This document shows, piece after piece, positions 7,002 to 49,780 of a stretch of 64,000 nt of DNA. Position numbers and translations under genes: made by a program. Below the pieces are notes generated by a model. That model was not told the DNA's origin, ran no database searches, and saw nothing but the letters and a program-made list of their open reading frames with translations. Origin of the DNA: Siphonodentalium dalli (lineage: Eukaryota; Mollusca; Scaphopoda; Gadilida; Siphonodentaliidae). The DNA lies in contig CP136064.1 of assembly GCA_032622095.1 (NCBI GenBank), positions 177,770,247 through 177,834,246 of the forward strand, in the 5' to 3' direction. Numbering within the stretch: the stretch's first letter is position 1; each line of letters opens with the position of its first letter.

Positions 7002-7529
7002 TACAGCTGTGCTTTGCTACACGCAGGCTGTATTGTTGGAATCGTGCTGATTGACATCTTCAGATAGGTCCAAGTTCTCCTCGCGTCGATATCATATATT
7101 TCGAGCTATTCATTTGGATTCCTTTACACATATAGAGGACGAATTCCGCGCAATATTGCAATGCCCATGTTTGAAAGACCGGCGAGTCAAATACATAATT
7201 AAATACTATTATTGTAAACCGAATACCATCAAATTATGCGAACATTTTTAACTGTAGACGATGGAAAACATTGAAAAACGTTTCTTTATTCATTAGACGG
7301 GTCCTGATTTTATTCAAAATCTCCTGAGGTATACTATGTAGGTAATGCATTTAAATCCGACATTTGCACAACCATGAGCTGTTCTCAACTGTTTTATTAA
7401 AATATTTGTAATTTTCACCGTGCACCTTTTTTGTATTTTTGCACAGAATTGAAATGCACTGTACATTATATTCCACAACGAGCTGTTGTGTCATACTTGA
7501 CGACTTGAGTGAAAACAAAATTGAATTGT
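7002..7529. other. Unassigned DNA
   Basis: Nothing recognised. The frame 7051-7251 shows no domain. Confidence 0.4.
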
Positions 7530-7697
7530 CCTCATCATAATCGTCATCGTCATCACCGTCGTCGTCTTTTCAATCGGCGTTGTCTCTCCATCGTAGTCGT
7601 ATCGGTGTAGTCATCATCATCATCATCGTCTTCTTCTTCTTCTTCTTCGTCATCATTATCTTCATCGTCATCAACATCATGATCGTCAACGCCGTCA
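7530..7697. repeat. Imperfect trinucleotide microsatellite
   Basis: Interrupted runs of TCA, TCG and TCT triplets, with (TCA)n near 7610-7626 and (TCT)n near 7630-7646. It would encode Ser/Asp/Glu-rich peptides in some frames, but there is no gene context. Confidence 0.85.
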
Positions 7698-8693
7698 TGA
7701 GGTTTTGAAACTCATGGATATATAGTTACGACTTCGTTTAGCTATTCGTAGTCGTAAAATTCAAGTAGGACCAACATTAGGAATACTGAATACGGCAATG
7801 TACTCCAGAGGTAAAGATGCGTTTGTTCCAACGATTCATTTAACCGCTGTGCTGTGCTCACATGTGTGTAAATTTCACGAAATGTTGCATGAACAAACCT
7901 ACATTATGTTATATCAACCGCCAAGGGTGCTTATATGTAAGGCAGGTGAATGACGTCATATATTTTTTTCTATATCCATCAGTGATTTTTTAGATCGCGG
8001 GTATGGATTTCGGAATAATTATCACGTGACTTCCGGTTAGCAACAGGGTGGAGATTGCAAAAAAACGCGGAATTGGGAATGAAGCATCGCGATGAAAATG
8101 AAAGTAACTAATTCACAACTTACGAAGAATTCACATGTGATTTAGGTCTATTAATTTCAATTAGACCAATTTCTTTGGTTAGCTTAATGAAAACGAAAAA
8201 CGAAGACACGGGTTCTGACGTCATTTTGGATTTGTGGGCCAGAATTCAGACAAGATTGCACAAACCACGACACGTCTTGTCAAAATGACATTTTCTTCTC
8301 CGTCCTGATCACTGTGTGGTGTTACATAAATTATTCTTGGCGCTATGTCTCCGATAAAAGGCAAATTTGAGGCACAGCATGTGTGGTTGCTCCACTATAC
8401 ATGTCACGTACGATTCATATTAACAACTCGTATATAATTATAATGGTATATGGAATGGCTTGCAGTGCGAGCGGAATGTTTTTTCAAGATCGAATGCAGT
8501 CGTTGATAATGTTGAAGAAATATGCCTATACAGCTTCCAAGATAGAGTATTAAATTCTACAAACATTGTCTTGTCCTCCATCTGTAATTCAGATGTTATT
8601 TTCAACGTCACAATTATTCTGCTCATGGATTGAACTATTACACATACTATAGTCACATGCATTAACAGAAATAACATATGGACATTTTTCTGA
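7698..8693. other. Unassigned DNA
   Basis: No recognisable gene or element. A GTCACGTACG decamer at 8403-8412 is the only near match outside 24-29 kb to the motif cluster described there. The minus-strand frame 8438-8677 is not recognised. Confidence 0.4.
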
Positions 8694-18177: not shown

Positions 18178-18790
18178 AATTATTGAGATATGATAACCCA
18201 TTATCGAAATATGATCACCCATAATTGAGATCTGGTAACCCATTATTGAAATCTGATCACCCATAATTGAGATCTGGTAACCTGTTATTGAAATCTGATC
18301 ACCCATAATTGAGATCTGGTAACCCATTATTGGAATCTGATCACCCATAATTGAGATATGGTAACCCGTTATTGAAATCTGATCACCCGTTATTAAGATC
18401 TGATAACCCATTATTTAGATCTGACAGCACATTACTTAGATCTGATAACCCACTATTGAGATATGTTAACCCACTCTGATAACCCGGTATTGATATGTTT
18501 GTGTTAAATCCACACCTAATGTCCACGAGATCTGATAACCCATTATTGCAGCCTGACAGCACATTATTGAGATCTGATATCCCATTATTGCGATCTTGTA
18601 ACCCGGTATTGATATGTGTGTCTTAAAGCCAAACCTAATGTCCACGAAATATGATAGCGCGTTCTTGAGATATGATAACCCATTATTGAGATCTGATAAC
18701 CCATTATTGATATCTTATACCCATTATTGATATGTTTGTCTTATAGCCATACCTAATGTCCTCGAGATCTGATAACCCACTATTGAGATG
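18178..18790. repeat. 21-bp minisatellite with 118-119-bp higher-order repeat
   Basis: The unit is close to GATCTGATAACCCATTATTG plus one base, alternating with TAATTGAGAT/TGATCACCC variants. From about 18487 a larger unit appears, containing TTGATATGTTTGTGTTA and ACCTAATGTCC. Its marker falls at 18514, 18633 and 18751. The 21-bp unit is a multiple of three and so keeps one minus frame open (18127-18411, seven-residue repeats such as GDQISIM). That frame is a product of periodicity. Confidence 0.85.
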
Positions 18791-35370: not shown

Positions 35371-35938
35371 GCCCGACTTCGTCCAGGCTGTTTCCCATCT
35401 CCTTTCCGGCGAAAGGCGCGATTTGACCTTGAATTGACTATTTTGAAAGTCAAGGTAAGGCCGGGGTCATGATTTGACCCGTCCAAAACACTCCCCGGAC
35501 AAAACACACCTAGGTATCAAATTTAGTCGAAATCCGTCCGTTTTACCCGATTTTACCTTGAATTGACCATTTTGAAGGTCAAAGTCAGGTGGGGGTCAAG
35601 ATTTGACCCGTCCAAAACACTCCCCAGACAAAGGTACCCCTGGGTATAAAATTTCGTCGAAATCCGTCCGTTTTACCCGATTTGACCTTGAATTGACCAT
35701 TTTGAAGGTCAATGTCATGTCGGGGTCACGATTTGACCCGTCCAAACACTTCCCGGACAAAACTATCCCTAGGTATCAAATTTCGTCGAAATCCGTCCGT
35801 ATTACCCGATTTGACCTTGAATTGACTGTTTTAAAGGTCAAGGTCAGGTAGGGGTCACGATTTGACCCGTCCAAAACACTCCCCGGACAAAAGTACCCAA
35901 AAGTACCCAAAAGTATCAAATTTCGTCGAACTATCTTT
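35371..35938 (+). repeat. 130-bp tandem repeat, about four copies
   Basis: Unit markers GATTTGACCTTGAATTGAC fall at 35420, 35549, 35679 and 35809 (spacing 129, 130, 130). Each unit has GTCACGATTTGACCCGTCC, CACTCCCCGGACAAAA and TCGTCGAAATCCGTCCG. The array is headed by CTGGTGGGCCCGACTTCGTC, a phrase that resembles the boundary of invertebrate retroposons. The frame 35603-35851 follows the repeat and is not a gene. Confidence 0.8.
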
Positions 35939-38590
35939 GATTACCACACGATCGCATGCTTTCCAAACGGTGTGGTTATTATCAATATCAGCACATGTGC
36001 TAATCTGTGTCTGACTATTTTATTGAGCATTCGGGGTAAGACTACAGCTTTTAACGCGACCCATTTTTACTTTTTCATCGACCTAATCCCCCATAATCCC
36101 CCATAACACCAGTGGATTTTATATTTTCAAGCACAGTATACACGCTGGCGTGATAATAAGCACCGATTCAAATGGGACGCTGAGCTTGGTTGTTGTCCAG
36201 TTGATTGATAACTCTAGTGAGAGGAAAGCCGGATTCTTCATCTCCAGTTGAAACATCCGAGTTTAGACGAGTTTACATTGACGGACCAGTGAAACCAGAT
36301 ATAATGGGACTTCGTGGTCGTTCAGTGGCTATAGGTTGGTCGTCAGAGGGTTATATAGACCCGCAAGAAATCTGTAATGAAGGTTTCTGTATCTCCTTTT
36401 ATACGTGAAAGTGTACTGAATCACATATCCAAAATCGGCGGAAATCGCTTTGAGCTAAATTTTCTATTCAAAATGGCGTCCATGCATGATGGCAGTTGGT
36501 ATCGAACAATTTTGAATTTCTGTGGTAGGTGCACCAACTAAAACCAAATTAGTAATAAAATAAAATATACACAAATAATACTTTGTCGCTAAACCATATT
36601 TGTAAAATGTCTGTCCAAAAATGGCCACCAAAACGGACCAAATTGAATAAAATTAACAATTTGTGGAAAATTGAATAGCTAGTCCTATAAGAGTGAACAA
36701 ACTCAAGAATTATGCGAGGAATAATAATTTCAGAGTATAAGGGAAACTTGATAAGAGATGTACAAATTCTCTCTGATGTATCTCACATGAGAGCAGAGTC
36801 TAAGGGTCATACAAGATTAAATCTGGACTTTTTCGGGCGCACAGAAACAGAAACAAATATGCAGTTTTATCTGTACTGTTTATCTTGAATGGCGTGATGT
36901 ATGTGTAATTAAACATTTAAATGGGATTTAATATGGATGTATTGATTGTTTGACCTTTTCTAGAAGCAGAAATATACATATACTCAGAGCAGTGTCACGA
37001 ATGTGACCGATCATCATTTATGTTTATATCTACAACATCAAACCTGCCAAAACTCACTACTATCGAACTATTTGAGAGCTGTTCAGCTGTAAAATGTGTA
37101 GACCCCGCTGGCCGTGTCTTAAAATAATAGTCATTGTTGACTCCGGTCAGGTGATGAAACACGAATATTTCGCTTTCATCACAAGAATCCATAGTGGTAT
37201 ACTATGAATGCAATTTATCAAAATACAAAGGGGTACCATAGACTATTTTCAATAAATTCTCAGCCTAACCACAATTGCCTACATACTCTGTGGTAGAGAC
37301 TGTCTTTATACCTGGATATTATATTTGGTTATATTAACTGAGGCCACATATACGCGAAACGTATAATATACGTTTTCTGCAGCCGCATCACCACGTTTAC
37401 CCCTTATTCCTAATGTTACACATAGCTGATGCACACACACCCATATATAGCAACATTGAGTGAATGGTCAATGTAGAAATAATAGCTTTAAACGCTGATC
37501 ACTTTATATTTAGCACAAGTACGTGGGTGGCATTGGTAAGATATTTTCAAACAACAAGATATTGAAAACAAATATTGTGCAACTAAAATCTGTTGTAATG
37601 TGCCGAATAAAGTAATGTGAAAAAAATTGTCTACTAATAAATCGGTTTGGTAGCAGCATAAAAATTATTCTCACGTAAAATGTACGATGTACCGTCTCTT
37701 CGATCTGGTCAGATGGGTTCAAATCTATTGAAGAGATGAGTATTTCTTCACAGTATAAAAATCATTACGACATACGTGTATGGTTTATTATCACGGAGAT
37801 TGTTGAAAATTCCGGAAATGTAAATAGTATTTATACCGCAAGGGTGTGTAATTCAGTTTCTGCTTTACAGTCAATAATTAGTCATCATTCCGACTGAAAC
37901 TACTACACGCTATGTGGCAAAACATTACTTGTATTTTGCATGCTCGAAATTATTATTTTTGGCCAGACTGTTGGATGCATTCTATGCAGAAAACCCGAAC
38001 ATTAAAGACGCACATAATTGGGTTAACTTGCGCTGCAGTGACCTGTAAATCCATCAGACGGAACTGTGTTAACTATGTGTCCTTTAAAGATATTGAACAA
38101 CTTGTAAATAAAAAATACGTATTATCATTTGGTTATCCAATATGTTGCTTTCGTCGTAGCATTGCTTGAAGTTGCATCCATTTTGACAGGCATTTATTTC
38201 ATGGCATCAATTGCATTATTTTCTGTCCTTCTGTCACTCTTTTCAAACAACTCGGATGAGGAGTAATGACTGTAATGTGTTCCGGTTTGTCGAAAAACCT
38301 ACTTCCCAATGTGGGAAAATGGGCATTGTAAAAGTCGCTGCAAAAACTTGTGCATATGTTATAGATGATATATTTTTGCTTCAAATGACACAAACAAACA
38401 TTCGTTACATAATTTCTTGTACACGTATTCTCGATATATACATTTTGGTTATCGCAATTGAAACAGTTTCATTGTCAATAGAACAACAACGACCAGCCGA
38501 TTCAGTGCAAATTGAGTCCCATCGGCACACTGCATGGAAAGATGCCTCTCAGTGCAATTCTCCTTTTTGAAGAAATATGACCACAGTTAA
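35939..38590. other. Unassigned DNA with one weak exon candidate
   Basis: No domain is recognisable in the frames 36205-36408, 37510-37722 (minus), 37912-38169 or 38211-38570. A minus-strand ATG frame (36995-37192) has protein-like composition and an in-frame GTGAGT donor-like site at 37052-37057, but no matching acceptor or further exon could be found. Confidence 0.35.
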
Positions 38591-39325
38591 GGAGCCAATA
38601 AGGTCCACCTGCACCCCCCCCCCCGATGATTACAAATAACTTTATTTTTATTGTTCCTTATGGTATCCAGATAAAGAATCCGGATTTCACCGAAAAATAA
38701 AGGTGGCCCTACTAGGTACTAGAGCCATTTGAATCCAAGATGGCCGCCATTTCCTCTAATTCAGACCAGCTGTATTTAATCGTTGTAATAGATCGGTTGT
38801 TAGCAAAAAGACACAGACAAAATGTATGCCATTTTGTTGGTATGATGTCCTTCTTCAAAATGACGGCAAATAATTTCGAAAAATCATCAAAATGGCCGCC
38901 GAAAAGACGTCATATGCACGAAAATAGGAAATTTAATTAATATTTCACCATATCTTCAATTTTTCTTCACATTAATCATTAGTAAATGGCAATGTTTTTG
39001 AGACAGTCACCAAGCGTGATAGAGGGGTAAAATTTCGATTTTTTGCAAGACGATTTTGATAGTCATTTTATCGACAAACCACACAGGCTGTTAATAGAAT
39101 GTCAACAACTATGTGCTTTATTTTATTGGACGGATGTTTTACTTCAATGGGAATGAAATTGGTGTAGAACATTTCCAAAATGGCCGCCGAAAATATGAAA
39201 AATGATAAATATTGCCCCAGGGTGTCTTGCAATGGCTTACAAGTTGTGGTTGATATATCAAATTGGCTAATCTGTATTATATACATTGAATACTAACATG
39301 TCTGATGCACCATGGATCATTGTTA

Positions 39326-40289
39326 CGTGCGCTCGCGCAACAGTATGGCGATCAGACAGATTCGTAGGTTGATGTCACTCTACTCCGTTTCACTCCATGA
39401 CGTCACCAAAAACGACGTAAAACCTCGTGGCGTTCTGACATTTTTACTGTGCCGCGTTTTTGCTATGTTTATTTTATGTGTTGTTTTCGATCATTTGTTT
39501 GTCGCCGATATCGCCGTTTGTCGGGATTCCCTGTTTCTATATTTAAAACTGGCATGCTCGTAGTGAGCCTCGATTTCGATTTTTTCTCACAGGTTAAAAT
39601 ACGTCAGAGTTATGACAAAAATAGATCGACCTACATTTTCTCCATCAGAACTCTACATCAAAGAGTCTATATACTCCTTCGGGACCTACATAGACTCCTT
39701 CATTTGGGTATTTTTACTTATAATTGGGAAGTTTTATCATTTTTGGTTCGTGCGAAGACCTCTTTTTATCGTGCGGGAAAAGAGAGACATTCAAAACGCG
39801 ATTCCGTAATTCGACGCAATAGGCTGAATAGCCTAACCTTCAGCCGAGTTCCGTGTCAAATACGACGAATGACGTAACACAAAACAAAACGCATTTGTTG
39901 ACACAAACACCGTTTGAAGAGTTTATTATTACATAAAATGATCGTTATTGATTTATTATTGATTAATTATTGATATTTATTGTTGCATATTGGCTGCTAT
40001 CAATATTTACACAAATGGTATTAATTATTTCTTATAATTGCTCCTTTGGTCAACTTTGACTATCGGAAAATCAAAATCAAAATATGCCGCTGAAAAAAAT
40101 GTATTCGATATTCTCACCCTTTCGGCAACATGGAATTGGTTTTAATTACTTAAATGATTAATATAGTAATTTACCTTTTATCTGTGATGAAATGAGAAAT
40201 GGTAATTGTCTTTTTTTGCTAACATTAAATTAAATTAAATAAATTAAGTAAAATACAGTGCACGTTGGCATCTCTCTGAGTGCATTCTA
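39326..40289 (+). mobile_element. 964-bp segment present only in the left foldback arm, flanked by GTTA
   Basis: GTTA lies at 39322-39325 and again at 40290-40293. In the right arm the corresponding sequence is continuous (CCATGGATCATTG joins directly to a TCACCACTGACATC block). The segment is either an insertion with a 4-bp target duplication or a part lost from the right arm through microhomology. It is locally CpG-rich (CGTGCGCTCGCGC at its start) and has a perfect CRE, TGACGTCA (39398-39405). It also has a strong acceptor-like TTTTTTCTCACAG (AG at 39591-39592). No terminal inverted repeats or poly(A) are seen. Confidence 0.6.
39612..39809 (+). CDS. Candidate small membrane protein, unknown family
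   Basis: A 65-codon ATG frame lies 20 bases after an acceptor-like site. The peptide starts with a polar stretch and has a hydrophobic segment at about residues 29-47 (FIWVFLLIIG and then HFWFV). It ends with a basic tail (RRPLFIVREKRD). The layout (CpG-rich start, CRE, acceptor, then ATG) would suit a short gene or a captured promoter-plus-exon. The longer overlapping frame 39449-39877 is in another phase and less protein-like. I know no homologue, and chance is a real alternative. Confidence 0.2.
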   Translation: MTKIDRPTFSPSELYIKESIYSFGTYIDSFIWVFLLIIGKFYHFWFVRRPLFIVREKRDIQNAIP

Positions 40290-40745
40290 GTTACTATAGT
40301 CACCACTGACATCGCCAGAAATATTGGATTTTTCTCTCACAAACTTGACATAAATATCGGCAAAAATTCACTTTTCAGGGTTGGACAATTTTTGTAAGTA
40401 AAATGCAACTATCATTGGTATCAAAGGTATTTATTGTTTTGATCTATCTTAAATGTGTCACACTACTATTGTGACTCACTTGGTTATTATACGTGTTAGT
40501 TAATTAACTGACAACTACGTTCTATTCTGTTTGTCCCAGTTCGGTATGGGGCATGACAAATTCATTCTAAAGTTGTAGTATGGAATTTTCCGGAGAACCT
40601 CTTTTGTGATTCTGGCCATATTATTGAAAGGAAATGGGCAGAACTTTGAGACGGAACTGAGATGAACCATAATATGTGGCTATTCTGGCCCATTATGATA
40701 AAAAGTGATCAACTGGATAAAAGATGGATGCCAAGATGGCAGCCA

Positions 40746-41840
40746 GGGAGTTACTCTATGATCATAGGTGATGTGAATAGGTATACAGGGAGTTACTGTA
40801 TGGTCATGAATGTTGTGAATATGTATACAAGGAGTGACTATATGGTTATGAGTGGGGTGTTCATGGTGAGATGCATAGGAATATAAGGAGTGGCTGTATG
40901 GGCATGTGTGAGGTGAATCGGTATACATGTAGTGACTGTACGGTGTATTGTTGTGTGTGGCCGATGTGACCGTATGGGTATTGATGTGGTGTATATATAT
41001 AACGAGAGTAGCTACATGGTCATCTGTGAGTTGTTTATGTATATATGAGTGACTGTAATGTCGTGGTGGGATGTATATGTGTACCGTGTGTGGCTGTATT
41101 GTGACATGTGGGTGTATATGTATATTTGTGCTGTCTGTATGATCATCGATGGAGTGCGTAGATAAATAGGGAGTGATTTTATGGTTTGGGGTAATGTGTA
41201 TATGTGCACACGGTATGCTTGTACGGTCAAGATTGAAGTTATATGCATACCTGTGGCTATATATGGAGTTCCCTTTTGGTAACGGTGGGTCGTATATTGA
41301 TATATGTTGTGGATGTATTATCATCGGTGGTGTATAGGGTGTAGATGAATGATCATGGATGGCGTGTACGAGTATACAGTGAGTCGCTGAATTGTCATGT
41401 GCGAGGTGTATATGCAAGTATGAAACTTATGTGTGGTCGTGTGTGCGGGTATTGGTATATTTGGAAGGGCTCACCATTGGTGAGGTGTATATGTATATCT
41501 GGATTGACTCTATGGTCATGGGTATGGCGAATAGATATACATGTAGTGGCTGTATGGTCCATGGTGAGGTGAATAGGTATACAATCAGTGACTGTATGAT
41601 CGTGAATGTGGTGAATATGTATACATAGAGTGACTATATGGTCAGGTGTGGGAGTATACCTGGTGTTCATGCATGGTGACTCATGGCTGTATCGTCATTT
41701 GTGGCATGTACCGGTATAACCAAATATGGCTGTATGGTCAGGTGTACGTGTATAGCTTGGGTGACTATATTGTCATTTGTGTGGTGTTTATGTACATATG
41801 AGGTCATGGGTGGGTTGTACATGTGTAATTTGGGTGGCTA
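40746..41840. repeat. 42-bp minisatellite, left arm
   Basis: Clear unit starts are at 40746, 40788 and 40830, each close to GGGAGTTACTGTATGGTCAT followed by A-GGTGTGAATAGGTATACA. Later units diverge and vary in length. 42 is divisible by three, so one minus frame stays open for 245 codons (40680-41417) with a 14-residue pattern rich in His, Thr and Ile (for example HDHTVTPCIPIHIT). I read this as a periodicity artefact and not a gene. Confidence 0.85.
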
Positions 41841-41962
41841 TCGCTTTCCACAATAACTCAAGGATATGTTAATCAATAGAGAGGTCATGTCAAAGCGTTC
41901 TCCACCTTGATAGTGTTTGTGTACATGGGGGAACGTTAAACGTGGAAAACGATAGCCACCCA
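41831..41962. repeat. Foldback apex: 21-bp stem and 90-base loop
   Basis: 41831-41851 and 41942-41962 are complementary with one mismatch (TGGGTGGCTATCG and then CTTTCCAC / GTTTTCCAC). The 90-base loop (41852-41941) is not repetitive and is therefore the unique centre of the element. Confidence 0.85.
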
Positions 41963-42850
41963 TTACCACACAGTCATTCCATATATACATAAACACCACA
42001 GACATAACAATATAGTGACCAACTGTATAAACGTACACCTGACCCATGACCATGGATGGCCATACAGCCATGAGTCACAATGTAGGCACACCGGGTATAA
42101 TCCTAAACATGACCCATAACCATGGAGTCACTCCTTGTATACCCATTCACCTCACCATTGGCCATACGGTCATCCCATGTATACCTATTCTCCACACACA
42201 CATGGTCAAGTAGACATTCAATATATACATCAACACCACAACAATGACCATAGAGTCACCCCGGGTATACATATCCACCCCACCAATGGTCATATAACCA
42301 CTCGCTTCATACACATACCCTGACCTATGGCACCTGGTATACTCCTTCATCTGACCTATGACCATATAGTCACCCCGTGTGTACCTATTCAAAACATTCA
42401 TACATGATCATGGTCAATCGTTGTATATATATTCACCTCCCTGTATCCCTATTTGTCACACCATAGCAGAATAGCTACTCAAGATATACTAATACTCCCC
42501 AGCCATGTCAGTATATTCACTCCATGTATGCATATGCACATCATCCATGGCCATATAGCCGCTCGCTATATACACATACCCCTCGCCCATGACCATATAG
42601 CAACACACGTGTATACCCGTATAACTTACACATGACCATACCGCAACGAGTCACCAAGCAGGAACACCGGGTATAGTCATACACCTGACACATGACCATT
42701 TAGTCACTCCCTGTATGTATAGCTATTCATTACATTTATGATCATACAGTCACTCATTGGATACATACATGTACTCATCTCACCATTGACATACAATAAC
42801 TCCCTGTATACCTATTCACCTCACCTATGATCATATAGTAACTCCCTGAC
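41963..42850. repeat. 42-bp minisatellite, right arm (inverted)
   Basis: Units here read as the complement of the left arm, for example CTATTCACCTCACCTATGAT and ATAGTAACTCCCTGTATAC. The number and order of units differ from the left arm, so unit-level turnover has occurred since the arms formed. The frames 42135-42323 and 42147-42401 are repeat-derived. Confidence 0.85.
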
Positions 42851-44220
42851 TACCATCTTGGCATCCACCCTGTATCCAGTTGATATGTTTTATCATAATG
42901 GACCAGAATAGCCACATATTATGGTTCATCTCAGTTCCGTTTCAAAGTTCTTCCCATTTCCTTTCAATAATATGGCAAGAAACACAAAAGAGGTTCTCCG
43001 CAAAATTCCATACTGCAACTTTAAAATGAATTTGTCATGCCCCATACGGAACTGGGACAAACATAATAGAACGTAGTTGTCAGTTAATTAACTAACACGT
43101 ATAATAACCAAGTGAGTCACAATTTACTACCTTGTCGGATAACGCAGAGAATATTGTTCGGGATATATGTAAAAAATTAACTTTTTACAAATTTGGTTGC
43201 CATTTTGGAAGCCATCTTGAGCAATTTGGTATATAAACACCGTAGTGTGACACATTTAAGATAGACCAAAACAATAAATACCTTTGATACCAATGATAGT
43301 TGCATTTTACTTAAAACAATTGTCCAACCCTGAAAAGTGAATTTTTGCCGAAATTTATGTCAAGTTTGTGAGAGAAAAATCCAATATTTCTGGTGATGTC
43401 AGTGGTGACAATAGAAACAATGATCCATGGTGCATCAGACATGTTAGTATGCAATGTATATAATACAGATTAGCCAATTTTATATATTTACCTCAACTTG
43501 TAAGCCATTGCCGGACACCCTGGGGCAATATTTACCATTTTTCATATTTTCGGCGGCCATTTTGGAAATGTTCTACACCAATTTCATTCCCATTGAAGTA
43601 AAACATCCGTCCAAGAAAATAAAGCACATAGTTGTTTACATTCTATTAACAGCATGTGTGGTTTGTCGTTAAAATGTCTATCAAAATCGTCTTGCAAAAA
43701 AAATCGAAACTTTCACCCTTTTTTTCAAATCCTCTTTCTGTATCTATTACGGAACCCTCGTCAATGGCAAATGTCTTAAAATGACACTATAATATCACGC
43801 TTGATGACTGTCTCAAAAGCATTGCCATTAACTAGTGATTAATGTGAAGAAAAATGGAAGATATGGTGAAATGTTAATTACATTTCCTATTTTCGTGCAT
43901 ATGACGTCATTTTTCGGCGGCCATTTTGATTTTTTTTCGAAATTATTTGCCGTCATTTTGAAGAAGGACATCATACCAACAAAATGCATTTTGTCTGTGT
44001 CTTTTGCTAACAACCGATCTATTACAACTATTAAATACAGCTGGTCGGAATTAGAGGAAATGGCGGCCATCTTGGATTCAAATGACTCTAGCACCTAGTA
44101 GGGTCACCTTTATTTTTCGGTGAAATCCGGATTCTTTATCTGGATACCATAGGGAACAATAAAAATACGGTTATTTGTAATCATCGGGGGGGGGGGGTGC
44201 AGGTGGACCTTATTGGCTCC

Positions 44221-45139
44221 CCGACTACCTATATACAGTTTTTCAATTTTGCAGTTTTGCAATTAATTTATTATATGTGCACTCACACATGCATTCGCGT
44301 TGTGGATAATGAATGCAGGTCATTGGTTGGTCTAAATTACGTCACGTGACGTCGCACGCCTATCCCCTATAATTACTTGCTTTCATATTGTGTATACGCA
44401 ACTTGCAACGAGCTACGAGATTAACGTTGGAAATGGGAGCGCCACACAGAATGTCAGACCAACTTGCATCCATTTTATGTGGAACGCAAGTAAATCAACA
44501 CCCAATTCTTTAATGTGAATGCATATATATGAACAGTGTTGCATTTATCTGGTGATGTACGGTTCGCCTGCATGGTGGCAATACGACTTGTGTTTAAAGC
44601 AGAAACACCCAGCGTGCACCAACTAAATAAGTGGGTCAAACATGTCCCGACGTGGGCATTCTTGTGGGCATTACGTCATTCAATTTGTCGGACTACGGGG
44701 TCTCTTCGCCCAAAAGATCAATATATATGCAGTTATGTATTGTCTCCCTTGGGCACATATTGCTCCTATATCCAAATCGAAATAATTTCAATCTGGATAG
44801 ATTTTTCACGAGAAATATCTGCTTGCATATAGAATGATGCATTACTTATGCACAAATTTGTATTCTCGCGAGGAAATTCCGTTTGATAAAAAAATATTTA
44901 TCGAGTGAGTGCTGAAAGATGACAATTATTCATGTATTCAGGTGTGCTCCAGCTTAATCTTCTATAGCGTTCAAGGTACACAGAGTCAATCGGCCATGCT
45001 TCTTCCAGTATGTTTAACGCAATGAATAATTGAAACAGTGGGATATCATGTTTATATATAACCCGTATAACAGTTGCATGCACAACATGTCGCATGTGTA
45101 TTTGAGACGCTTTCGATATTAAACTGACATGGCTCATTC
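44221..45139. other. Unassigned DNA with a CRE/E-box palindrome
   Basis: A 14-base palindrome, ACGTCACGTGACGT, lies at 44339-44352 (E-box within two CRE-like halves). The context TTACGTCACGTGACG resembles the complement of 3030-3042. Nothing shows promoter function. The frame 44536-44832 is not recognised. Confidence 0.4.
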
Positions 45140-48883: not shown

Positions 48884-49780
48884 TCTCTATTCCGAAGGTT
48901 CGCTATTCCGAAGGTTCACTAATCCGAAGGTTCACTATTCCGAAGGTTCACTATTCCGAAGGTTAACTATTCCGAAGGTTCACTATTCCGAAGGTTTTTG
49001 TTATTTTAAAAGTTAATTCTATATTCTAAAGTATTGAGAGGGTTCTTTAGTACGAAGACTCTTTTTATGAAGGAGATAACTTAAAACATTAAAAAAATAA
49101 ATGTGATTTTTGTTTTCGTGGGTTTCCTTGAGATTTAACCCTTTGGCGAGTAGAACGACATATATGTCGTCTATCGGCTGCATGAGGACTAAAACGACAG
49201 TTTTAGGAAGTGTTATTTTACGTAGACATAACTTCAATAAATCATCTGATTTATAAATGATTTACATAGGAGTTATTTTGATTAATATAATGTCCCAAAT
49301 GCTAAAGGCGGACTATGTCACTATAACAGTGGGGCTCTTACGGTCAATCAATACTGGAGTGCTATAACTTACCGTATAGCAGAATACCGCTGAATGGACC
49401 TAACTGCAATTCTGACTTTGTATTGATTTTAATGTTGATGTTTCTTTCAAGTACAGATTGCCAGTTCGGGTAGAATGCATCTCTAACTCGTAGTTTATTT
49501 CAGTCATTGTGTTTTCAACTTTCTATAATATTAAAATGATAAACTGATACTGTCTTCTTGCTATTAATAACCGACATCTGGGACAAATTAGATATTAGAT
49601 TGGGGTGTATAAATGTACAGGGGCACAAATTTTGATTCATTTCTGGCTAAAAACTCCCATAATAGAAAACCTTGGGAATAGCGAACCTTCGGAATAGTGA
49701 ACCTTCGGATTAGTGAACCTTCGGATTAGTGAACCTTCGGATTAGTGAACCTTCGGAATAGCGAACCTTCGGAATAGAGA
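48884..49780. mobile_element. MITE with termini made of a 16-bp tandem unit
   Basis: The left end (48884-48996) is TCTCTATTCCGAAGGTTCGC followed by about six more CCGAAGGTTCACTATT units. The right end (49670-49780) is the mirrored array of about six CCTTCGGAATAGTGAA-type units ending GGAATAGAGA. The 897-bp element has no transposase. It carries a TTAACCCTTTGG fragment (49135-49149) and a perfect palindrome ACGACATATATGTCGT just after it. Terminal repeats built from tandem units are unusual for small TIR elements. Confidence 0.8.

What the first reader, a model, noticed from the sequence alone, without database searches (positions are those of the whole stretch)
38591..44220. A 5.6-kb foldback element with minisatellite arms, possibly an undescribed family
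Inverted arms of 2.3-3.3 kb close on a 90-base unique loop. The inner part of each arm is a 42-bp tandem repeat, and the outer parts are non-repetitive and carry CAAGATGGCCGCC blocks. The arms differ by large indels and point changes, so they have evolved separately and are not an assembly echo. Long inverted repeats with tandem inner units are known for FB (Drosophila), TU (sea urchin) and Galileo elements. The sequence here matches none that I know.
Basis: partly seen in the sequence, partly recalled or inferred. Interest (0 to 1): 0.85.

Follow-up and report, generated by a model that had tools for sequence, protein, structure and literature searches.

The report
Mobile palindrome and its transposase-encoding partner
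The window holds one copy of a hairpin-shaped jumping gene that has hundreds of relatives in this genome and probably moves by borrowing an enzyme from a larger partner found there; its two mirror-image halves appear to copy each other as they evolve.

Summary
Window 38584-44227 is one old copy of a high-copy foldback DNA transposon (825 exact 23-bp termini genome-wide).

A candidate autonomous partner was found: elements of about 7.65 kb with the same ends. Their ~710-bp TIRs match the outer 684 bp of the foldback arms at 96-97.5%, and they hold a reading frame of up to 1425 codons. No Pfam model passes its cut-off and no PDB chain matches. Academ is my best guess of superfamily, resting largely on recall.

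The arms look like a conversion pair. They are 98-100% identical over the outer 1.2 kb, then fall off inward. Some subfamily-private bases sit in both arms. One 364-bp duplication junction occurs in left arm only, right arm only, or both.

The inner arms are degenerate 42-bp arrays. The loop 24-mer has 2671 copies, 2.5 to 5 times what these ends allow; unexplained.

New variant of a known kind (foldback transposons).

The parts
38584..44227 (.). whole foldback element (window copy)
   Evidence: ends and spans of other copies; left end CAGTTAA and right end CCGACTA
38581..38583 (.). left target-site 3-mer CCA (degenerate duplication)
   Evidence: exact 3-bp duplications in 17 of 19 other copies
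44228..44230 (.). right target-site 3-mer CCT
38584..39194 (+). left outer arm, part shared with the TIR of the partner elements (consensus 1-684; the window copy lacks about 72 bp at 39021)
   Evidence: 96-97.5% to L032, L038 and L040 TIRs; gap; end placed by the motif at 39176
43546..44227 (-). right outer arm, part shared with the partner TIR
   Evidence: end placed by the motif at 43556
39195..40743 (+). left outer arm, foldback-specific part, interrupted by the nested insertion
   Evidence: no match to partner elements over 90 bp at E 1e-8; inverted match to the right arm
42852..43545 (-). right outer arm, foldback-specific part
39325..40289 (.). nested insertion of about 965 bp, possibly flanked by GTTAC repeats; not part of the family
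   Evidence: site uninterrupted in 15 of 20 fetched copies; flanks printed
40744..41840 (+). left inner arm: degenerate 42-bp tandem array
41955..42851 (-). right inner arm: degenerate 42-bp tandem array
41853..41941 (.). loop; its 24-mer at 41851 is present 2671 times in the genome

Best explanation
It is a non-autonomous cut-and-paste DNA transposon of foldback structure. A protein made by ~7.65-kb partner elements with the same ends most likely recognises the shared outer TIR and inserts either kind of element with a 3-bp target duplication. The arms are kept alike by one arm being copied onto the other, mainly in the outer part, most plausibly during repair of a break or hairpin at the palindrome. 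Such copying carries point changes and a 364-bp tandem duplication from arm to arm, while the inner 42-bp arrays have drifted apart. Shown: common ends, common 3-bp duplications, the common 684-bp TIR, mirrored changes, and elements with the duplication in one or both arms. Inferred: that the partner's protein is the transposase and acts in trans, and the route of arm copying. The Academ superfamily is a guess (about 0.5).
For: 825 exact termini with 0 backward controls. Exact 3-bp duplications in 17 of 19 copies with both ends, against 0 or 1 of 19 at six control offsets. Partners L039 and L040 have 3-bp duplications TGT and GAT; partner TIRs match foldback consensus 1-684 at 96-97.5%. At least five near-full partner copies at 97-98%. 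Arms 98-100% identical per 100 bp to 1200 bp, then 96, 92, 84, 67%. No arm-specific fixed base in the outer 1383 bp of ten copies. Three subfamily-A bases in both arms, absent elsewhere and from partner TIRs. Same duplication junction in both arms of L037; on C1, of 34 complete elements, both arms 4, one arm 9, none 21.
Against: No transposase model matches the partner protein and no PDB chain does. L032 itself lacks an exact duplication (CAT/CAG). Arm copying is incomplete: subfamily A has one right-only base at 146, and L016/L018/L020 have left-only bases at 249, 262 and 388; in L037 the mirrored units are not consistently closest (L1-R1 97.6%, but L1-L2 96.3% exceeds L2-R2 93.9%). Core identity rises again toward the loop (74-83%), so the decline is not monotonic. 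Four of 9 one-arm elements do not have the expected length and 4 of 21 without an exact junction are also 5.2-5.3 kb. Most loop copies lack these ends.
Confidence: 0.78

Rival explanations
1. The element is a foldback transposon, but the partner is not its mobiliser: the ~7.65-kb elements merely share or captured the same TIR, and another transposase does the work.
For: The partner protein has no recognised transposase domain. Other long copies with the same ends carry different, unrelated interiors (L029, L030, L031).
Against: Partner copies have the same ends and 3-bp duplications (L039, L040) and the frame lies in the same place in L032, L038, L039 and L040. The protein belongs to a large family in this genome (89 matches), as expected of a transposon gene.
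Confidence: 0.15
2. Arms are alike because the outer arm was recently duplicated in inverted orientation in one progenitor, with no copying between arms afterwards.
For: Identity falls from about 99% to 67% between 1.1 and 1.6 kb, as a duplication boundary might; many private changes are in one arm only.
Against: The fall is graded. Bases that mark a subfamily, absent from the others and from the partner, occur in both arms, and one duplication junction occurs in left, right or both arms.
Confidence: 0.12
3. The palindromes arise by host template switching or segmental inverted duplication, not transposition.
For: Near-palindromes can form by snap-back synthesis (established knowledge); 11 of the 20 copies first fetched lack one or both ends (one search set).
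Against: Fixed ends with 3-bp direct repeats and unrelated flanks in 17 of 19 and hundreds of dispersed termini.
Confidence: 0.03

Closest known systems
Galileo (Drosophila, P superfamily); PMC3573991, PMC4168063, PMC3688188, passages seen
   Same: Long TIRs of 0.5-1.2 kb and more; copies of two TIRs only; growth by tandem repeats and by recruiting internal sequence; proposed recombination and conversion between TIRs; several transposase-binding sites in TIR repeats.
   Different: 7-bp target duplications and a THAP/P-type transposase; here 3 bp and a protein with no Pfam transposase match.
Tetris (D. virilis foldback); PMC4079207, passages seen
   Same: Non-autonomous foldback with internal tandem repeats in the TIR that seeded satellite arrays.
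   Different: 8-10 bp target duplications, assigned to Mutator; three complete copies; autonomous copy not found. Here 3 bp, hundreds of termini, partner proposed.
FB (D. melanogaster) and TU (sea urchin) foldbacks (recalled)
   Same: Long inverted arms with tandem inner repeats.
   Different: Longer target duplications (about 8-9 bp, recalled).
Academ transposons; PMC10294476 passages (bivalve expansion, mean 5565 bp), rest recalled
   Same: Long element and protein, 3-4 bp duplications and XPG-like C-terminal part (last two recalled).
   Different: No Academ profile or sequence could be compared; no Academ foldback seen in the searches made.

Membership tests
Foldback transposons (structural class) | Long near-palindromic inverted arms with repetitive inner part, in dispersed copies | tested here: met
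Foldback transposons (structural class) | Target-site duplication at copies with both ends | tested here: met
   17 of 19 exact 3 bp
Same family as the ~7.65-kb partner | Equal duplication length and terminal alignment over positions 1-11 (Repbase rule, PMC4455052) | tested here: met
   3 bp in L039 and L040; alignment from base 1 over 684 bp in L032
Galileo / P superfamily | 7-8 bp target duplication | tested here: not met
   3 bp
Mutator foldbacks (Tetris, FB type) | About 8-11 bp target duplication | tested here: not met
   3 bp; no Pfam transposase hit in partner ORFs
CACTA/EnSpm | Termini CACTA or CACTG (recalled) | tested here: not met
   termini TAGTCGG, although 3-bp duplication fits; no Pfam hit
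PIF/Harbinger | 3-bp TWA-type duplication and DDE_Tnp_4 domain (recalled) | tested here: not met
   duplications are varied; no Pfam hit
Zator | 3-bp duplication (PMC10045372) and Zator transposase | tested here: inconclusive
   duplication length fits; no Zator profile to compare
Academ | 3-4 bp duplication (recalled) | tested here: met
Academ | XPG/FEN1-like nuclease part in the protein (recalled) | tested here: inconclusive
   motif-like by eye in L032/L038; no Pfam or PDB match
Academ | Sequence homology to Academ transposase | not testable with these tools
   no Academ profile or sequence on hand

The most novel reading that the evidence does not exclude
This is the first foldback family tied to an Academ-type transposase, and its natural series of copies (364-bp duplication in no arm, left arm, right arm or both) catches arm-to-arm copying in the act: the long TIR is an active conversion unit that grows in 364-bp steps and seeds satellite arrays.
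Probability: 0.38. Interest if true: 0.75.

Novelty: new variant of a known kind. Interest (0 to 1): 0.6.

Why it matters
How foldback transposons form and keep their long mirror-image arms is an open question, and an autonomous partner is often missing (the Tetris paper says its own was not found). Here a candidate partner, exact ends and hundreds of copies in graded states lie in one nine-contig genome, so both questions can be tested by counting and by assay. If right, it extends foldbacks to a 3-bp-duplication lineage and shows a recent source of tandem repeats.

Tried and rejected
Rejected: chance or assembly artefact; membership of Galileo/P, Mutator, CACTA and Harbinger (see table). L029 holds a 767-aa ORF that I read by eye as hAT-like; Pfam gave it no match at E 1, its interior is not shared with the other three long interiors, and it is taken as a nested insertion. 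Another outer arm on truncated copies was sought among 11 flanks and not seen. A relative of the partner protein in viral contigs: none. An empty site among the fetched loci and window: none. Rfam (gathering threshold) and tRNA scans of the window: nothing. Substitution counts between partner frames were too few and mixed (ratio 0.56-3.36) to argue for selection. The abundance of the loop was not resolved: loop 24-mer 2671, arm 24-mer 1402 or about 700 arm pairs, left-core 24-mer 290, termini 825 exact and 1063 with up to 3 mismatches. A count of a 24-mer at the right edge of the loop was asked for many times and never answered (last). Structure prediction of the partner protein was not tried, because the tool's list of permitted sources does not include loci obtained in this way.
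Full report
What is there. The window lies in a 2.23-Gb, nine-contig genome, at C4:177770247-177834246. Blast of the region on itself gives inverted arms in blocks of 94-96%, and 86% where the block enters the minisatellite. A 201-bp probe from the left core (41300-41500) gave 40 scored matches out of 2676 first-look candidates: the window itself and 39 others at 97-98%, on 8 of 9 contigs. I fetched 20 stretches covering 21 of those 39 places. They were picked for similarity to the window core, so they over-represent its subfamily.

Boundaries. In fetched copies the arms begin TAGTCGGGGAGCCAATAAGGTCCACC. The first 23 bases occur 403 times forward and 422 times reverse, with none for the backward control; with up to 3 mismatches 1063 times. 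Of the loci examined, 19 held both ends. In 17 of these 19 the three bases outside the two ends are identical (GTT, CAG, TAT, GAT, TAC, CAT, GTA, TTT, ACC, AAA, AAT, ATA, ATT, GTA, ATC, TGT, GAT). The misses are L028 (ATG/AAA) and the partner L032 (CAT/CAG). At six control offsets 0 or 1 of 19 match. Eleven of the first 20 copies lacked one or both ends and dropped out of the count (L009, L014, L015, L017, L021-L027); L031, whose right end lay outside the stretch, and L038, whose left end is absent, were not given to that call. The window copy, also not counted, has CCA and CCT, and its left end reads CAGTTAA, four transitions from TAGTCGG.

Sizes and deletion forms. Among the first 100 exact termini listed (all on C1), 34 facing pairs lie within 20 kb and 32 termini are unpaired. 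Spans cluster at 4.85-5.0 kb (8), 5.2-5.33 kb (9) and 5.64-5.74 kb (4), with short forms of 362, 645, 1098, 1876 and 2141 bp and five long forms of 7.7-17.9 kb. The short forms fetched, L033-L036, have exact 3-bp duplications.

The partner. Among the long forms, L032 spans 7657 bp and has ~710-bp TIRs (98.9% to each other) with long ORFs between. A search with its last ORF scored 84 of 3573 candidates and gave 89 matches: five near-full copies at 97-100% (L032 itself included; one of them with two stops), a relative at 62% in a 1575-aa frame and many at 30-60%. Three more copies were fetched. L040 has both ends and GAT duplications. L039 has TGT duplications but almost no left TIR and a duplicated right end. 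L038 lacks the left end and holds a 1425-codon open frame. Foldback consensus 1-684 matches these TIRs at 96-97.5%; the rest of the consensus has no match over 90 bp in the four partner loci. Pfam shows only DUF6589, below its cut-off (21.5 and 13.5 bits against 27). No PDB chain matches at E 10, and no paper in the library mentions DUF6589. The C-terminal part reads to me like an XPG/FEN1-type nuclease, which I recall as a mark of Academ; this is a lead, not a test. The interiors of four long copies (L029-L032) share nothing by blast.

How the arms evolve. In a consensus of ten copies (nine with both ends, and the window copy without its nested insertion) the arms are 98-100% identical per 100 bp over the first 1200 bp, then 96, 92, 84 and 67%; in the core identity is 51-67% and rises again to 74-83% toward the loop. 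In the outer 1383 bp no site is fixed (80% or more) for different bases in left and right arms, and arm divergence within a copy (0.7-5.2%, mean 2.7%) is like that between copies (means 2.3-3.4%). Subfamily A (L013, L016, L018, L020) has three private bases in the outer 700 bp, in left and right arms alike (8/8, 6/6, 8/8) and absent from other copies (0/11 each) and from five partner TIRs. Copying is not complete: of A's 19 left-arm and 6 right-arm private changes 3 are in both; the left-only ones lie at 747 and further in, but one right-only change lies at 146, and L016/L018/L020 together have left-only changes at 249, 262 and 388 besides five in both arms.

The duplication. L037 carries a tandem duplication (unit 364 bp) with an identical junction in both arms; mirror identity of units is mixed (L1-R1 97.6%, L2-R2 93.9%, L1-L2 96.3%, R1-R2 93.1%). 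The junction 25-mer occurs 267 times in the genome, controls 0. On C1, of the 34 elements with both exact ends it is in both arms of 4, one arm of 9 and neither arm of 21 (exact junctions only, so a mutated one would be missed: L030 has two in its right arm by direct reading and one in the list). Length agrees for 3 of the 4 both-arm elements (5.65-5.67 kb; the fourth holds a large insert) and 5 of the 9 one-arm elements (5.25-5.32 kb); the other four are 2.1, 4.91, 4.96 and 9.8 kb, and 4 of the 21 without junction are also 5.2-5.3 kb, as expected from a second class with an expanded left core (L013, L016, L018, L020). The loop gives orientation for nine of the 34: right-only at C1:16619049, 40705030 and 130236619, left-only at 68733205 and 92165313, both at 84670863, none in three. 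Of the first 100 junctions listed, 73 clusters, 15 are facing groups 4-7 kb apart, and runs at 363-366-bp spacing reach four in a row near C4:226971637-226972751, like the start of a satellite. The partner's right end has a direct repeat at the same 364-bp offset (86.8%), and the consensus arm has weak repeats at offsets of 364, 357 and 348.

Mechanism offered. Cut-and-paste by the partner's protein in trans (inferred) with a 3-bp staggered insertion (shown by the duplications). As the element is a near-palindrome, a broken or extruded arm can be repaired from the other. Copying that favours the outer part would keep that kilobase alike, carry duplications across, and leave the inner arrays to drift. 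The repeated AARATGGC motifs, at roughly 350-bp steps from position 303, could be protein-binding sites, as the THAP sites in Galileo TIRs are (PMC3688188, passages); they also resemble the vertebrate YY1 site as I recall it. Both are inference.

Comparison. Galileo papers describe TIR growth by tandem repeats and recruitment and propose that long TIRs attract recombination and conversion (PMC3573991, passages; PMC4168063, passages). Tetris shows a foldback seeding satellites; its paper says most foldbacks seem to be Mutator (PMC4079207, passages). Zator and Academ are short-duplication superfamilies (PMC10045372, passages, for Zator; Academ recalled). Academ is reported as expanded in bivalves (PMC10294476, passages). 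No listing or 108 shows a foldback with 3-bp duplications or an Academ foldback; Repbase could not be searched.

Open point. The loop 24-mer is present 2671 times; of the first 100 loops listed on C1 only 14 have an exact terminus within 6 kb. The arm 24-mer gives about 700 arm pairs and the left-core 24-mer 290.

Noticed in passing
48884-48998 and 49666-49780: Two inverted arrays of a 16-bp unit (CTATTCCGAAGGTTCA), about seven copies each, 96% complementary and 667 bp apart; a second, small element with tandem-repeat arms.
   Followed up: partly
39325-40289: Nested ~965-bp insertion in the left arm, with possible 5-bp GTTAC direct repeats; no match in other fetched loci beyond 24 bp in L011.
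   Followed up: partly
L010:7043-8179 and L017 (reversed) 7396-8519: Two unrelated inserts of about 1.13 kb sit at the same TTAA of the right arm, each with short inverted ends and TTAA on both sides, like TTAA-targeting transposons.
   Followed up: partly
genome-wide; window 41851: Loop 24-mer is present 2671 times, far more than the termini; most loop copies lack these ends.
   Followed up: partly
L024:4561 and 6389: Core with loop duplicated in tandem, about 1.83 kb apart, in one copy.
   Followed up: no
18179-18785: 21-bp and 119-bp tandem arrays with ATCTGATAACCCATTATTG units.
   Followed up: no
35419-35898: 129-bp tandem array, 3.7 copies, related sequence also in L020, L025 and L038.
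   Followed up: no
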